Positions 2,446-7,566 of a DNA stretch of 45,181 bases are shown here, one piece after another; position 1 is the first letter of the stretch, and each line of letters begins with the position of its first letter. The stretch is from Gemella sanguinis ATCC 700632 (lineage in GTDB: Bacteria; Bacillota; Bacilli; Staphylococcales; Gemellaceae): NCBI RefSeq assembly GCF_000701685.1, contig NZ_JNJO01000013.1:1-45181 (forward strand). The letters run 5' to 3'. Both the position numbers and the translations under genes were made by a program. Below the pieces are notes generated by a model, which saw only the letters and a program-made list of their open reading frames with translations, did no database searches and had not been told where the DNA came from.

Positions 2446-3657
2446 ATGAATTTTAAATTTATGGTTTCACTGTTACTTTTTTACATGAAAGGTGAAGTGA
2501 ATATAGAAAAAAATATGGTAAGAGCAACATTTCCAAATACCATATTCAAGTTAATTCCATTAGGAAAAACTAATAAAAGTATACAAGTTAATCAAATCTC
2601 TAATATTGATGATAGCTTCAGATTAGATGTTAAAGCATTTATTCTCGGTATTCTTGCAGTAATATTTGGATTCTCTGCGTTTTCAGATTCTGTAGTGCTT
2701 GGTATTATTTTATTAGTATATGGAGTGAGTACAATTGTTTCATCTTTTGAAACTATATTAGTTGTGTATTCTACAGCTGGGGTACCTTTTGTTATTAGCT
2801 TTGTTATATTCGAGAAAGAAAAAGCACTGCAAATTAAAGCCGAATTAGATAAAATAACAAATTATCATAACGATTCTCGTGATTTAAATATCCATAGAGA
2901 ACAAAGTCTAGCAGGAATGAGAGATATTATGAGAGAAGTTACTAACTTCCCACGATATGATCAATATGGTAATCCGGTGAATGGTCAACCTAATTTCCAA
3001 AATGGACAACAACCATATAATCCAAATTTCCAAGGAAATAATGGATACCAAGGATATAATGGGCAAAATCCACAAGGGCATGATTATCAACAGTTTGATC
3101 AATATGGACAACCGGTAAACCCTAATTATCAAGGTCAACCAAATCATGGTTACAATTTTAATTTCCAAGGTCAATCAAATCCTCAAGGATACCAAAACCA
3201 GGGACAACCAAACCACGGACAAAATCCAAACGGACCAAGACCGCAACAACCAATGAATCAAGGACATCCAAATCAAGGATATAATCCAAATGGGCCAAGA
3301 CCACAACAACCAAATTACCAAGGTCAACCAAATCAAGGTGTAAATCCAAACCAAGGTCAAAATCCAAATGGACCAAGGCCACAACAACCTAGCCAAGGGT
3401 CAGTAAATCAAGGTGTAAACCCAAATCACCAAGAGCAAAGCCCTATAAAAGAAGCTCCGAAACCACAAGAAACTGTGCAAAAACAAGAGGCTCCAACTCC
3501 AGAGGTTAAAGAAACACCAGAAGCTAACGAGCCAGTTGAAGTGAAAAAAGAAGTAAATGAAACTCCAAGTATTCAAGGTGGAGCTAAGAGTAGAAGACTT
3601 CAAAAGTTAAATAAACCAGAAGAAGAACAAACTATTCTAAAAAGAAGAAATAAATAA
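2446..3657 (+). CDS. Two-helix membrane protein with Gln/Asn/Gly/Pro-rich tail
   Basis: 403 residues, start fixed by AGAGGAGG five to six bases before ATG. Residues about 20-60 (MVRATFPNTIFKLIPLGKTN...) look like a small beta-rich PH-like domain; this is an inference. Two hydrophobic segments follow at about 64-82 and 84-125, with charged EKEKALQIKAELDKI after them. Residues 165-330 are a low-complexity tail with QPNHGQNPNGPRPQQP-like repeats, followed by a Glu/Pro/Lys-rich end (PKPQETVQKQEAPTPEVK) and a basic C-terminus. With a two-helix hairpin both ends should be cytoplasmic. Function unknown. It faces away from another protein with an Asn-rich part, suggesting both may be scaffold or cell-surface assembly factors, but nothing proves it. 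Confidence 0.8.
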   Translation: MNFKFMVSLLLFYMKGEVNIEKNMVRATFPNTIFKLIPLGKTNKSIQVNQISNIDDSFRLDVKAFILGILAVIFGFSAFSDSVVLGIILLVYGVSTIVSSFETILVVYSTAGVPFVISFVIFEKEKALQIKAELDKITNYHNDSRDLNIHREQSLAGMRDIMREVTNFPRYDQYGNPVNGQPNFQNGQQPYNPNFQGNNGYQGYNGQNPQGHDYQQFDQYGQPVNPNYQGQPNHGYNFNFQGQSNPQGYQNQGQPNHGQNPNGPRPQQPMNQGHPNQGYNPNGPRPQQPNYQGQPNQGVNPNQGQNPNGPRPQQPSQGSVNQGVNPNHQEQSPIKEAPKPQETVQKQEAPTPEVKETPEANEPVEVKKEVNETPSIQGGAKSRRLQKLNKPEEEQTILKRRNK

Positions 3658-3843: not shown

Positions 3844-5283
3844 ATGACAAAAATAGCTATTTCTTTTTCTAATTCATATACAGGAAAAGTGCTAAATGGA
3901 ATAGATAGGTTGCAGGTAAAAAGAACAGACTATTTGGAAAAATTAGGTATTGTTCATACTATAGTTAGTACGCTAAAGAAAAATATTGGTAAGGATAATC
4001 ATATATTGAACTATTTATTTTCAAGTGATTATAATATAACGAATAAAAATAATAAAGAACTGAATATAAGTAATACAGAAAATGAGATAAAAATCGATTT
4101 AAATAATGAAGAATATATTTTTAATGGAGTAGAATTCTCGTCATATTATAGTCTGATAACTCATTTATTAACAGTGTTTATACCTGAAGATGCATTATGT
4201 TTTTTTGATTGGTTTGGAGAACCTATAAATTATCTGTTTGAAGGTGTGAAACATGCTCGCACAATAGGTGTAGTTCATTCGAATCATATTTGTAGTTATG
4301 TGCCATCGGTAACTAACAATCATCAACTTTGGCATAGAGAGTTTGATTACTACATAACTACTAATGATATTCAAACGGAAGATCTTAAGAAGAGGTTTCC
4401 CAAAAAAGCTAATAGAATATTAACTGTAGTTCCTTATGATGTTTTTTATTTAGAAGAGCCAGTGTCGCCTGAAGATAAAGTGTCGCACAATACTAATACG
4501 TTACAACTAGTTACAGCTAGCTATCTAGAGGATAACAAGTGTATTGACTATCTGATTCAAATAATGCGTTTAGTTATAAATAAAAACCCTAATGTTTATT
4601 TGAATATTTATGGACAAGGGACGCAATTAGAGTATTTACAAAATTTAGCTAGTAGTCTAGGGGTCAGCAATAATGTTTATTTTCATGGACATTATGAAGA
4701 TGCGGCTATCTTAAAAAAATATGACGTCTATGTAAGTACTTCTCCAAATGAAGCTTTTGCGACAGTTTTATTAGAAGCGATGTCGCTTGGGTTACCGGTT
4801 ATTGGTTTAGATGTGCTATTTGCGAATAAAAACTATATTAAAAATGGTTATAACGGCTATCTTATACCTTATTCTGTAGTGAATATTGAGTCGAAAGCAG
4901 ATATCTACTTTGAACAAATAGCTATGTATACTGAATTTTCTAATAAACTATTGACATTAACAAACGATGAAATAAGTAACTTAGGTGAAAACGCGAAAAA
5001 GTTTGTTGAAAAGTTTTATGGAGAAGGTAGAGCTGTTCAAGATTATAGAAAATTATTAGAAGATGTAGAAAAAATAGAGGAGGAACCTTACATACCGATT
5101 AAGAGGGGTGATTTATGTGCAGGTCTTCATGTAAATCATGTTAAAGTTCCTAGGGAATGGTCATATGTTATGCAGTCGTATAATAATTCATATATTTGTG
5201 ATCTAGATGTTAATATAATAGCGGTGACTGAATTTAATGAAGGAGAGTTTCCTATAATAAAAGCAATCAAGTGGAAAGAATAA
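3844..5283 (+). CDS. Family 4 glycosyltransferase, substrate unknown
   Basis: 479 residues with AAAGGA before ATG. The C-terminal half has a GT4 core: SPNEAFATVLLEAMSLGLPV contains the E-X7-E pair (Glu303 and Glu311) that binds the nucleotide sugar, and VYLNIYGQGTQLEYLQNLA matches the usual GxG strand-loop. The N-terminal half (residues 1-200) is divergent and resembles cytoplasmic Gram-positive protein or teichoic acid glucosyltransferases more than capsule enzymes. No signal peptide or membrane helix is seen. It stands alone, 15 kb from the capsule locus and directly upstream of two Pro/Thr-rich exported proteins; glycosylation of a surface protein is possible but unproven. Confidence 0.8.
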   Translation: MTKIAISFSNSYTGKVLNGIDRLQVKRTDYLEKLGIVHTIVSTLKKNIGKDNHILNYLFSSDYNITNKNNKELNISNTENEIKIDLNNEEYIFNGVEFSSYYSLITHLLTVFIPEDALCFFDWFGEPINYLFEGVKHARTIGVVHSNHICSYVPSVTNNHQLWHREFDYYITTNDIQTEDLKKRFPKKANRILTVVPYDVFYLEEPVSPEDKVSHNTNTLQLVTASYLEDNKCIDYLIQIMRLVINKNPNVYLNIYGQGTQLEYLQNLASSLGVSNNVYFHGHYEDAAILKKYDVYVSTSPNEAFATVLLEAMSLGLPVIGLDVLFANKNYIKNGYNGYLIPYSVVNIESKADIYFEQIAMYTEFSNKLLTLTNDEISNLGENAKKFVEKFYGEGRAVQDYRKLLEDVEKIEEEPYIPIKRGDLCAGLHVNHVKVPREWSYVMQSYNNSYICDLDVNIIAVTEFNEGEFPIIKAIKWKE

Positions 5284-5382: not shown

Positions 5383-5412
5383 TTGATAAGTTATTATATA
5401 TCGTGCTATAAT
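5383..5412 (+). promoter_or_regulatory. Promoter of the first internal-LPXTG gene
   Basis: TTGATA at 5383-5388 and an extended TGC-TATAAT (-10 at 5407-5412) are 18 bp apart, 73 bp before the start codon at 5486. Confidence 0.65.
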
Positions 5413-5485: not shown

Positions 5486-6319
5486 ATGAAAAAGAAATTG
5501 TTTTTATTAACATTATCTGCGAGTAGTTTATTAAGTGCACAACCAGCTCTTGCGAACAACTCACAAACAGATGTTGAAGCTAAATTAAATAGTGTAGAGT
5601 GGAAAGGATTAAAGCCTGCTAAAAATGGTGGAGCGAATATTGCTCATATAGATAAATCTAGTTTATCTGCTGATGAGGCGAAAGCAATCCGTACGTTAGG
5701 TAGAGATGAGAGAGTAAAAGAATGTTCGGTTTATAAATTGGTTTATGAAAAAAATGGGTCATCACCGAAAAAACCAAAAACATTACCTAATACAGGTGAT
5801 GTAATAGGTAGCGGTTATTTAGTTGGAGCGGGAGTTCTAGCTGGATTAGCGTTTTATTTATTAAGAAATAAACAAGGAAGAAAAATGCTTGTTATTATGT
5901 TAGTAGGGGGAAGTTCATTAGTATATGCGATAAATGATGCTAATGCAATTTCAGGTACTGTCATTAAACCTTCAATTCTAGTAGCGAGTGATAATGTGAT
6001 TAACGCACCAGAAATAGATGGATATCGTTTTGTAGGTGTTATTGAAATGGAGGGTGTTTGTTTAATAGATCCAACGCCAACACCAACGCCAACACCAACG
6101 CCAACACCAACGCCAACACCAACACCGACACCAACGCCGACACCAACGCCAACACCGGAACCTCAACCGGAAAATGAAGATAATAATTATGTTACGGTTA
6201 AACCGGGAACACCTTCTCCGGCAAGTTCACCAATTATGTCACCATTTATTATAGATTTTAGTGATCAATTTGAAGACGAACAAAAAGATGAATTAAAAAA
6301 ACTTACAGATTTAGTTTAA
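5486..6319 (+). CDS. Exported protein with internal LPNTG sorting signal and Pro-Thr repeat tail
   Basis: 277 residues. I start at ATG 5486, behind AAAGGA, rather than at the in-frame ATG 30 bases upstream, because the paralogue at 6610 begins at the same residue. Order: signal peptide 1-23 (cleavage after ALA); a short outer domain 24-98 with one cysteine (Cys80, VKECSVYKLVYEKNG); LPNTG at 100-104; a membrane segment 108-126; basic RNKQGRK 127-133. That is a complete sortase signal, yet the frame goes on: a second hydrophobic segment from Met134 (MLVIMLVGGSSLVYAINDANA) looks like another signal peptide with cleavage after ANA-154. Then comes GYRFVGVIEMEGVCLIDP (Cys192), 14 Pro-Thr dipeptides, and a conserved end (PGTPSPASSPIM, then acidic DFSDQFEDEQKDELKK). 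Function unknown. Either one polytopic protein cut by sortase in the middle, or two products. Confidence 0.85.
   Translation: MKKKLFLLTLSASSLLSAQPALANNSQTDVEAKLNSVEWKGLKPAKNGGANIAHIDKSSLSADEAKAIRTLGRDERVKECSVYKLVYEKNGSSPKKPKTLPNTGDVIGSGYLVGAGVLAGLAFYLLRNKQGRKMLVIMLVGGSSLVYAINDANAISGTVIKPSILVASDNVINAPEIDGYRFVGVIEMEGVCLIDPTPTPTPTPTPTPTPTPTPTPTPTPTPTPEPQPENEDNNYVTVKPGTPSPASSPIMSPFIIDFSDQFEDEQKDELKKLTDLV
5874..5887 (+). promoter_or_regulatory. Possible internal ribosome site and start codon
   Basis: AAGGA at 5874-5878 lies six bases before an in-frame ATG at 5885-5887. Translation from it would give a protein starting with a signal-peptide-like MLVIMLVGGSSLVYA. The identical arrangement is at 6998-7011 in the paralogue. 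It also simply encodes QGRKM, so the site may be coincidental. Confidence 0.35.
6071..6154 (+). repeat. Hexanucleotide CCAACR repeat encoding 14 Pro-Thr pairs
   Basis: Fourteen tandem 6-bp units, mainly alternating CCAACG and CCAACA with a few CCG/ACA variants toward the 3' end. Length changes would alter the exported tail in two-residue steps without breaking the frame. Confidence 0.9.
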
Positions 6320-6328
6320 AACTAAATA

Positions 6329-6383
6329 AAACACCTGTAAAAACTCCTTTGTGAGAGCAAAGCTGTTTACGGGTGTTTTTTTG
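6329..6383 (+). terminator. Intrinsic terminator
   Basis: AACACCTGTAAA pairs with TTTACGGGTGTT (one G-U) and an inner CTTTG/CAAAG hairpin caps it; a run of T follows. It ends the transcript of the first paralogue. Confidence 0.8.
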
Positions 6384-6510
6384 TAAAGTTATGAAAAAAA
6401 TAAAAATTTTCAATATATTTTTAAAGATGAAATAATTATTTTCAAATAAAATGTAAAAAATAATATTATTCTTAATCTATGAATATATTATATTGCTGTT
6501 TATATAAGTA

Positions 6511-6540
6511 TTGGAAAAAATATAAGCTGTATGATATAAT
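6511..6540 (+). promoter_or_regulatory. Promoter of the second internal-LPXTG gene
   Basis: TTGGAA at 6511-6516 and TATAAT at 6535-6540, 18 bp apart. With the terminator upstream, the two paralogues are transcribed separately. Confidence 0.55.
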
Positions 6541-6609
6541 AAAAATTAAATAGAGAAGAAAAATATTAAATTTACAAAAATAACAACAACAAAAGGGGAA
6601 GGGTATATC

Positions 6610-7566
6610 ATGAAGAAAAAATTATTATTATTAACATTATCGGCAAGTAGCTTATTATACGCACAACCAGCGCTCGCAAATAACTCAAAAACAGATGTGG
6701 AAGCTAAGTTGAGCAGTAATCAGTGGAAAGGTTTAAAAGCGGCTAAAAATGGAGGAGCAAATATTTCTTATGTAGATAAAGCTAGTTTATCCGCTGAAGA
6801 GAAAGCTGCAATTCGAGCATTAGGAAAAGATGAAAGAGTCAAAGAATGTTCAGTTTACAAACTGGTTTATGAAAAAAATGGAGCACCAGTCAACAAACCT
6901 AAAACATTACCAAATACTGGGGATGTAGTAGGTTATGGTTACCTAGTAGGAGCAGGCGTATTAGCGGGATTGGCCTTTTATCTATTAAGAAATAAACAAG
7001 GAAGAAAAATGCTTGTTATTATGCTAGTTGGAGGAAGTTCATTAGTATATGCAATAAACGATACTAATGCATTTTCTGGGAATCCAGTTGCTCCAACTAT
7101 ACTAGTAGCTAGTAATAGTGTAATTAATGCACCGGAGATTGATGGATATCGTTTTGTAGGTGTGATAGAGTTGGAAGGAGTTTGTTTAATTGACCCTAAT
7201 CCAACACCAAAACCAGATCCGAAACCAGAACTAAAACCAGATCCGGATCCAAAAGTGACACCAAATCCAGAACCGAATCCAGAGGAACCACAAGTTAAGC
7301 CAGGGACACCGTCACCAGCATGTCCGCCAACTATGAACCCTAATGTACCTTCAGAAGTTCCAACAGGTGATCCAGGAACACCGTCACCAGCGTGCCCACC
7401 GACCGTGGTACCAAATCTACCTACACCCCCAAGTTCACCTGGTGGTGGAGTGGGAACACCAGCTCCAGCGAGTTCACCAATTATGGCACCGTTTATGTTA
7501 GATTTTAGTGATGAGTTTGAAGATGCACAAAAAGATGAATTAAAGAGAATAGCAGGTCTATTTTAA
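6610..7566 (+). CDS. Second exported protein with internal LPNTG signal, Cys/Pro-rich tail
   Basis: 318 residues, tandem paralogue of the preceding gene, with GGGGAAGGG before ATG. Residues 1-196 align without gaps: signal peptide to ALA-23, Cys80, LPNTG 100-104, membrane segment 108-126, RNKQGRK, Met134, second signal-like segment with cleavage possible after TNA-154, Cys192. The tails differ: instead of Pro-Thr repeats this one has a PKPDPKPE-type stretch and three related modules, PGTPSPACPPTM, PGTPSPACPPTV and GTPAPASSPIM. Two of these add cysteines, which are rare in exported Gram-positive proteins. The acidic C-terminus (DFSDEFEDAQKDELKR) is shared. The pair arose by duplication with many synonymous changes. 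Function unknown. Confidence 0.85.
   Translation: MKKKLLLLTLSASSLLYAQPALANNSKTDVEAKLSSNQWKGLKAAKNGGANISYVDKASLSAEEKAAIRALGKDERVKECSVYKLVYEKNGAPVNKPKTLPNTGDVVGYGYLVGAGVLAGLAFYLLRNKQGRKMLVIMLVGGSSLVYAINDTNAFSGNPVAPTILVASNSVINAPEIDGYRFVGVIELEGVCLIDPNPTPKPDPKPELKPDPDPKVTPNPEPNPEEPQVKPGTPSPACPPTMNPNVPSEVPTGDPGTPSPACPPTVVPNLPTPPSSPGGGVGTPAPASSPIMAPFMLDFSDEFEDAQKDELKRIAGLF
6998..7011 (+). promoter_or_regulatory. Possible internal ribosome site and start codon (paralogue)
   Basis: AAGGA at 6998-7002 with a six-base spacer before in-frame ATG 7009-7011. The 13 codons around it are identical at DNA level to the first paralogue, although most codons just before the block differ synonymously. Confidence 0.35.

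What the first reader, a model, noticed from the sequence alone, without database searches (positions are those of the whole stretch)
5486..7566. Sortase sorting signal in the middle of two tandem exported proteins
In both paralogues LPNTG, a membrane helix and a basic RNKQGRK tail form a complete cell-wall sorting signal at residues 100-133, where the protein should end. Instead a second hydrophobic segment with an ANA/TNA-type cleavage site follows, then an exported-looking Pro-rich tail and a conserved acidic end. Sortase cleavage would split the chain: the small N-terminal domain becomes wall-linked while the rest stays in the membrane or is released by signal peptidase. This would give two surface products from one gene. 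I know of no described system with this layout.
Basis: partly seen in the sequence, partly recalled or inferred. Interest (0 to 1): 0.82.

Follow-up and report, generated by a model that had tools for sequence, protein, structure and literature searches.

The report
Split wall anchor on short proteins
Two neighbouring genes make short surface proteins with the cell-wall attachment signal in the middle, a layout shared with antibody-cutting enzymes of related bacteria, and paired cysteines suggest that the two cut halves stay bolted together on the cell surface.

Summary
In detail: both tandem genes encode signal peptide, ~75-residue domain, LPNTG, hydrophobic segment, RNKQGRK, second hydrophobic segment with an Ala site, a conserved strand and a Pro-rich tail. 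The layout is not undescribed. The module is homologous to the N-terminal sorting module of M26 zinc metalloproteases (IgA1 protease/ZmpA-D), including this genome's own M26 protease. Papers seen in passages say sortase A recognises that N-terminal LPXTG and the enzyme is cut about 56 residues downstream. New here: the module on short non-protease proteins (three in this genome, five in two Streptococcus-genus genomes, a diverged one in a third). Also new: among 198 sampled modules, 18 of 19 with a mature N-side cysteine also have one beyond the second cleavage site, in six sequence clusters; in most complete cases no further cysteine follows. Their positions fit antiparallel strand pairing. 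I infer that sortase and signal peptidase excise the membrane hairpin and that the wall-linked N-half and tail-bearing C-half stay joined as one two-chain domain, stapled by a disulfide in some lineages, both window proteins included. Cleavage and disulfide are inferred, not shown.

The parts
5486..6319 (+). short module protein 1, 277 aa
   Evidence: intact ORF; module homology
6610..7566 (+). short module protein 2, 318 aa, tandem paralogue
   Evidence: intact ORF; 78% identical over residues 1-255 of protein 1
5486..5554 (+). signal peptide of protein 1 (residues 1-23, ALA|NN, by eye); not YSIRK type
   Evidence: sequence; no YSIRK_signal match up to E 1
5555..5782 (+). N-half of the split domain, residues 24-99
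   Evidence: alignments; predicted strands at about residues 50-56 and 81-89
5723..5725 (+). Cys80 codon, N-half member of the cysteine pair
5783..5797 (+). LPNTG, residues 100-104
5798..5863 (+). first hydrophobic (membrane) segment, residues 105-126
   Evidence: hydropathy
5864..5884 (+). basic loop RNKQGRK, residues 127-133, taken as cytoplasmic
   Evidence: topology inferred
5885..5947 (+). second hydrophobic segment with putative cleavage site after Ala154 (alternative: Ala148)
   Evidence: aligned Ala in 188 of 198 modules; searches align Ala148 instead
5948..6067 (+). C-half of the split domain, residues 155-194, with IDGYRFVGVI strand
   Evidence: strand at about 180-189
6059..6061 (+). 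Cys192 codon, C-half member of the cysteine pair
6071..6156 (+). (Pro-Thr)n tail encoded by a 12-bp repeat, 7.2 copies
6218..6316 (+). conserved acidic end PASSPIM...LKKLTDLV
   Evidence: dN/dS 0.21 against protein 2
6679..6906 (+). N-half of protein 2 (Cys80 codon 6847-6849)
6907..6921 (+). LPNTG of protein 2
7009..7071 (+). second hydrophobic segment of protein 2 with TNA|F site
7072..7191 (+). C-half of protein 2 (Cys192 codon 7183-7185)
5383..5412 (+). promoter-like site before protein 1, TTGATA-18-TATAAT, 11 of 12
   Evidence: 13 such sites in the stretch, 10.3 +/- 3.6 in shuffles
6511..6540 (+). promoter-like site before protein 2, 10 of 12
3844..5283 (+). GT4 glycosyltransferase, GtfA/SdgA-like below those families' cut-offs; may decorate the Pro/Thr tail (inferred)
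   Evidence: found only in this genome of 9 of its genus at E 1e-20

Best explanation
The two proteins are short surface proteins that use the N-terminal sorting module of M26 metalloproteases to display a Pro-rich, acid-ended tail instead of a protease. Inferred pathway: (1) the signal peptide exports the N-half; (2) the segment after LPNTG stops transfer, RNKQGRK stays inside, and the second hydrophobic segment sends the rest out, making a membrane hairpin; (3) sortase cuts LPNT|G and links the N-half to peptidoglycan; (4) signal peptidase cuts after Ala154 (or Ala148); (5) the hairpin is thereby excised, and the N-half (strands before LPXTG) and C-half (the GY.(F/Y)VG strand beyond) remain one two-chain domain that holds the tail on the wall. 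In some lineages, both window proteins included, a disulfide (Cys80-Cys192) staples the chains. Steps 1-2 rest on sequence. Steps 3-4 are supported by published work on homologues, which I saw second-hand. Step 5 is my inference, mainly from cysteine co-occurrence.
For: Homology: the module profile hits the own-genome M26 protease (2269-aa frame; E 7.7e-53; YSIRK, FIVAR, G5, M26_N, M26_C by Pfam) and the PDB sequence 7uvk_A, 'IgA1 Protease', 2201 aa, at residues 47-200 (E 2.2e-24; the length is that of G. haemolysans IgA1P in PMC9637739). Processing: PMC9637739 passages state sortase A recognition and cleavage 56 residues downstream; PMC7695701 gives mature S. pneumoniae IgA1P as residues 154-1963. 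Leu100 to Ala154 spans 55 residues, the commonest value (81 of 198). One sortase was found in this genome, its best PDB matches class A. Two chains joined: of 198 distinct modules, 19 have a mature N-half Cys and 18 of these also a C-half Cys. In 60 clusters at 50% identity, 7 have N Cys, 8 have C Cys, 6 both (hypergeometric 3.8e-6). In 10 of 13 complete pair-bearing ORFs no other Cys follows the module, in proteins up to 1964 aa. Offsets from Tyr87 and Gly184 sum to 1, 0 (or -2), 3 and 1 in four lineages; a second strand pair gives 1 and 1 in two more, as antiparallel pairing predicts (Monte Carlo on the first four 0.003-0.012). AlphaFold2 puts strands in both halves with block pLDDT of about 70-88.
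Against: 162 of 198 modules have no cysteine at all, so a disulfide is not general. One module is N-only (L243) and four are C-only (three of L146 type, L062). Mean-field DCA on the 198 (effective 92): the strongest coupling is between the halves, but inter-half couplings are not enriched (6 of the top 10 against a fraction of 0.67 expected) and the antiparallel register is not favoured. The grouping into two strand pairs was made after seeing the data, and clusters are not fully independent lineages. AF2 models are weak (mean pLDDT 55.6 and 68.6; pTM 0.52 and 0.56), show the hairpin as low-confidence strands rather than helices, and gave no coordinates, so strand partners are unseen. Foldseek found no PDB match at E 0.001 for either model. 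The second cleavage site depends on the alignment: searches align Ala148 (VYA), Ala154, with the conserved Ala. Bender and Weiser 2006 was not held. No cleavage, sortase dependence or disulfide is shown for these proteins.
Confidence: 0.6

Rival explanations
1. Two independent products: sortase leaves the N-half on the wall and signal peptidase releases the tail; the halves do not stay together.
For: Both cleavage motifs are conserved. IgA1 protease can be released from cells in late stationary phase (PMC7939560, passage).
Against: The C-half has invariant columns of its own next to the hairpin, and cysteines appear on both sides together (18 of 19), which independent products would not need.
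Confidence: 0.17
2. The LPNTG is a relic and the protein is an uncut two-pass membrane protein with both ends outside.
For: A mid-chain signal followed by a second hydrophobic segment gives this topology if neither enzyme cuts it. 18 of 198 modules lack a strict LPxTG.
Against: Strict LPxTG in 180 of 198 and Ala at the second site in 188 of 198; dN/dS 0.04 over LPNTG to Ala154; published processing of homologues.
Confidence: 0.12
3. The genes are decaying remnants of an M26 protease.
For: They share the module with the own-genome M26 gene, and in four of seven relatives fetched an M26 or module gene lies near the same fructose operon. Shortened M26 genes do occur in streptococci.
Against: Two paralogues and a third copy elsewhere are intact; selection is purifying in the five segments analysed, the tail end included; the tails are unrelated to M26 (Pro-rich, FctA). 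The same short subfamily has MucBP passengers in two Streptococcus-genus genomes. The own M26 gene is an open frame elsewhere.
Confidence: 0.04
4. The C-half is made as a separate secreted protein from an internal ATG at 5885, which has an AAGGAAG ribosome-site-like stretch upstream in both paralogues.
For: Sequence before 5885 and the identical stretch in protein 2.
Against: Met occupies that column in only 15 of 198 modules and is Phe in the third own paralogue; the segment would lack a basic n-region.
Confidence: 0.05

Closest known systems
N-terminal sorting module of M26 zinc metalloproteases (IgA1 protease/ZmpA, ZmpB, ZmpC, ZmpD) of Streptococcus and Gemella
   Same: Same order of parts, detectable homology over the ~155-residue module, same spacing from LPXTG to the second site.
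   Different: No protease, no G5 and no YSIRK signal found in the window proteins; passenger of only ~85-125 residues; cysteine pair at positions of its own.
Canonical C-terminal LPXTG surface proteins
   Same: LPXTG, hydrophobic segment, basic tail; Pfam Gram_pos_anchor above cut-off.
   Different: The signal lies at residues 100-133 of 277 and 318, followed by a second hydrophobic segment and a tail; what sortase would link is the N-half, not the tail.
EF2685/EF0750 family sortase-dependent surface proteins (NF053819)
   Same: Weak match to the sorting-signal region only (27.8 and 24.9 bits).
   Different: Below the 47-bit cut-off; match limited to residues 86-130.

Membership tests
M26-type N-terminal sorting module | LPXTG about 100 residues from the N-terminus, not at the C-terminus | tested here: met
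   residues 100-104 in both, no other LPxTG
M26-type N-terminal sorting module | two hydrophobic segments after LPXTG with a basic loop between | tested here: met
   hydropathy peaks at 110 and 134, RNKQGRK at 127; 198 of 198 modules pass the cut used
M26-type N-terminal sorting module | Ala-x-Ala type motif about 55-56 residues after LPXTG | tested here: met
   55 residues from Leu100 to Ala154; PMC9637739 gives 56. Motif only: cleavage was not tested and Ala148 is an alternative
M26-type N-terminal sorting module | sequence homology over the module | tested here: met
M26-type N-terminal sorting module | sortase A dependence | not testable with these tools
   bench work; only the presence of one sortase was seen
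M26 metallopeptidase | M26 catalytic region with HExxH | tested here: not met
   no Pfam match up to E 1, no HExxH and no phmmer match to the M26 region
M26 metallopeptidase | G5 domain | tested here: not met
   no match
YSIRK-type signal peptide proteins | YSIRK signal | tested here: not met
   no match, while the own M26 protease has one
Canonical LPXTG protein | sorting signal at the C-terminus | tested here: not met
   residues 100-133 of 277 and 318
Two-chain disulfide-stapled anchor (this report) | Cys on both sides of the two cleavage sites | tested here: met
   Cys80 and Cys192 in both proteins
Two-chain disulfide-stapled anchor (this report) | the two halves pack together and the cysteines bond | tested here: inconclusive
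   strands predicted, partners not visible; DCA uninformative

The most novel reading that the evidence does not exclude
A self-excising wall anchor: sortase and signal peptidase cut the membrane hairpin out of the middle of a single folded domain, leaving a two-chain domain whose N-chain is bonded to peptidoglycan and whose C-chain carries the passenger. This would explain how an N-terminal sorting signal can hold a protein that lies after it, in M26 proteases as well as here. Several lineages lock the chains with a disulfide whose place follows the register of the paired strands. The module is portable: M26, trypsin-like, FctA, MucBP, G5 and Pro-rich passengers follow it.
Probability: 0.45. 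Interest if true: 0.82.

Novelty: new variant of a known kind. Interest (0 to 1): 0.6.

Why it matters
The passages I could read say that M26 proteases are linked to the surface by sortase A, yet that the mature enzyme starts after the sorting signal, so what is linked to what is unclear from them. The cysteine pairs offer a concrete, testable answer. The short proteins are small, protease-free carriers of the same module in which the mechanism can be tested cheaply. If right, this is a way to fix a protein by its N-terminal end to the Gram-positive wall, which C-terminal LPXTG display does not do.

Tried and rejected
The scan of named genomes with protein 1 found no relative; none in viral contigs with A3 or protein 1; no match to the module of protein 1 in plasmids or phages. 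So the fold is untested, not new. Coevolution was inconclusive. Internal start: rejected as a general feature. Short Streptococcus-genus ORFs not counted as short forms: L100 (M26 match continues in another frame), L101, L237, L238 and L239 (cut at contig ends), L232, L234 and L242 (M26-like sequence in or beside a shortened ORF), L103 (N in the sequence), L108, L229, L230, L231, L236 and L243 (no M26 match in the stretch fetched; L230 is a shortened relative of L233 by sight). Weak hits of A1 in other genera (E above 1e-5) were left aside. TIM-barrel hits of the A7 profile look like composition matches. My recall of Bender and Weiser 2006 could not be checked; Bek-Thomsen 2012 was not held either. 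For the two-chain or disulfide idea I saw nothing in the listings or in the passages read; only open-licence PMC papers are covered, and I read passages, not whole papers.
Full report
Observation. The two genes are intact and as described. Protein 1 (5486-6319, 277 aa) and protein 2 (6610-7566, 318 aa) each have a conventional signal peptide, a ~75-residue domain, LPNTG at 100-104, a hydrophobic segment, RNKQGRK at 127-133, a second hydrophobic segment from Met134, ANA or TNA ending at Ala154, a conserved stretch with IDGYRFVGVI and Cys192, then a Pro-rich tail and an acidic end. Selection between the paralogues is purifying in the parts that can be aligned without gaps (dN/dS 0.033 signal peptide, 0.161 N-half, 0.040 LPNTG to Ala154, 0.082 C-half, 0.214 tail end). 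A promoter-like site precedes each, though such sites are about as common as in shuffles.

What it is. A search of this genome found a third paralogue on another contig (415 aa, FctA-type domain in the tail), with no C-terminal LPXTG. A profile of the module (A1) then hit the genome's own M26 metalloprotease: one 2269-aa frame with YSIRK signal, the module, FIVAR, G5, M26_N and M26_C. In own-family genomes (G000-G014) one search gave 23 matches below E 1e-18, in this genome and 9 of the 14 others, and I examined all 23 ORFs. Fifteen have an M26 catalytic region with HExxH, one is M26-like and cut by a contig end, three are cut at contig ends, one carries a trypsin-like domain, one is the FctA protein, and two are the window proteins. 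(My notebook entry says sixteen; the count is fifteen.) The profile also matches the PDB sequence 7uvk_A, named IgA1 Protease, at residues 47-200, E 2.2e-24. In 398 genomes drawn from the window's class (Bacilli, by inference) the module was found at E 1e-8 in 23, in 2 of 146 genera, the window's and g41. Two g41 contigs have the lengths of named Streptococcus contigs (G235:C2 and NZ_CALSFO010000002.1; G327:C13 and NZ_KV813662.1), so I call g41 Streptococcus. The alignment scan returned 40 named loci, 37 Streptococcus and 3 Gemella haemolysans. G003 and G007, of the window's genus, match G. haemolysans contigs by length, so the window is from Gemella.

Known biology. Passages read in PMC9637739 state that metallo-IgA1 proteases share an N-terminal LPXTG recognised by sortase A and that the enzyme is cleaved 56 residues downstream, citing Bender and Weiser 2006, which I could not read. 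PMC7695701 gives the mature S. pneumoniae enzyme as residues 154-1963 and says it is linked to the surface by sortase A (passages). [quoted passage not shown] PMC2705793 and PMC6722419 call the location atypical (passages).

What differs here. The passenger. A subfamily profile (A7) built from the three own-genome proteins and two Streptococcus-genus proteins finds, at E 1e-15, only this genome among 398 of its class. At E 1e-20 it finds 4 of 284 Streptococcus-genus genomes: five frames of 501-607 aa in G674 and G675 (some N-termini masked), and one long frame each in G552 and G647. The two of the five scanned by Pfam (L224, L227) have MucBP after the module. A more diverged short protein (L235, G515, 253-aa frame) has a PTPEPKPDP tail. 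Among 59 other genomes searched with protein 1, matches were partial and weak, best E 1.2e-14. The neighbouring glycosyltransferase was found at E 1e-20 only in this genome of 9 of the genus. In four of seven relatives fetched (G005, G003, G008, G002) an M26 or module gene is followed by three or so conserved genes and then DeoR-FruK-FruA, with a relative of the 403-aa gene next to DeoR in two (G008, G002); the other three (G004, G006, G001) do not show this. In the window, glycosyltransferase, protein 1 and protein 2 sit between the 403-aa gene and DeoR, so the three look like a lineage-specific insert (inference).

Evidence that the halves stay together. I collected module-bearing ORFs from the fetched loci: 279 ORFs, 7 partial and 1 with masked letters dropped, 198 distinct after removing duplicates. 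The sample is not exhaustive: the lists were capped and I chose regions for diversity. Cysteine tally (N-half, hairpin, C-half): none 162; 1-0-1 13; 0-1-0 11; 0-0-1 4; 1-0-2 3; 1-0-0 3; 1-1-1 2. Of the three N-only rows, two cysteines lie in the signal peptide (L186, L264, by sight) and one (L243) in a long linker. So 18 of 19 modules with a mature N-half cysteine also have one in the C-half, while 4 have a C-half cysteine only. An earlier set of 78 gave 14 both, 0 N-only, 1 C-only. After clustering at 50% identity, 6 of 60 clusters have both, 1 mature N-only, 2 C-only. In 10 of 13 complete pair-bearing ORFs no cysteine follows the module; the exceptions are protein 2, the own M26 protease and L098, part of a split M26 gene. 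Of 31 complete ORFs without module cysteines, 28 have none after the module either. In the seven complete S. infantis-type proteases of that table (1882-1964-aa frames) the two module cysteines have no other after them.

Register. The pairs sit at different places in different lineages. Counted from Tyr87 in the N-half and Gly184 in the C-half: window family -7/+8, L088 -7/+5 and +7, L051 +6/-3, L235 +4/-3; the sums are 1, -2 or 0, 3, 1. Counted from Tyr54 and Leu160: L114 -9/+10, L214 -7/+8; both sums 1. (Residue numbers are window columns of the alignment.) Constant sums are what antiparallel neighbours give. A simple Monte Carlo on the first four gives 0.003 (0.012 with a narrower range). 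The grouping into two strand pairs was made after looking, so this is suggestive only. AlphaFold2 with 35 sequences predicts strands in both halves (window: block pLDDT 71-84 and 70-80; Streptococcus module: mostly 80-88) and a poor hairpin, drawn as strands (blocks 31-60), where helices were expected; strand partners could not be read. DCA did not settle it.

Mechanism and its standing. Shown by sequence: parts, order, conservation, homology, cysteine co-occurrence. Taken from passages about homologues: sortase recognition and downstream cleavage. Inferred: that both cuts happen in these proteins, that the halves form one domain, that Cys80 and Cys192 bond, and that the Pro-Thr tail is glycosylated by the neighbouring enzyme (GtfA/SdgA-like, below the family cut-offs). 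One sortase was found in the genome at E 0.001, with class A structures as its best matches.

Verdict. A known sorting layout on a new kind of passenger, with an unexpected cysteine pattern that makes an unclear anchoring step testable.

Noticed in passing
L003 2804-3733 (G000:C11): The third paralogue lies next to a thioredoxin-like lipoprotein gene (WCGPC motif) and a CcdA-like membrane protein gene on the opposite strand, genes of extracytoplasmic thiol chemistry (named by sight).
   Followed up: no
window 3844-5283: GtfA/SdgA-like glycosyltransferase beside a (Pro-Thr)n protein, not found at E 1e-20 in the 8 other genomes of the genus searched; a possible dedicated O-glycosyltransferase.
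   Followed up: partly
window 2446-3657: 403-aa protein with hydrophobic N-terminal part and a long Gln/Asn/Pro/Gly-rich repeat region; no Pfam or NCBIfam match up to E 1; relatives sit next to DeoR in two other genomes.
   Followed up: partly
L053 2023-3849 (G005): 609-aa frame with the same sorting module and a trypsin-like domain but no M26 region; PMC9637739 describes a trypsin-like domain inside G. haemolysans IgA1 protease.
   Followed up: partly
L106 1188-4112 and L233 1789-4755: Streptococcus-genus frames of 975 and 989 aa with the module but no M26 match; L106 has five G5 domains and a sub-threshold CAP match; the last residues shown are identical.
   Followed up: partly
L225, L226 and L003 C-termini: Unrelated passengers end in similar short motifs (TPIAVAPVDEL, PPTHVGPDDEL, PITVAPSDHLDD), and the window proteins end in an acidic KDEL-containing stretch; meaning unknown.
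   Followed up: no
window 5864-5890 and 6988-7014: Identical ribosome-site-like stretch before an in-frame ATG at the start of the second hydrophobic segment in both paralogues; Met at that place in only 15 of 198 homologues.
   Followed up: yes
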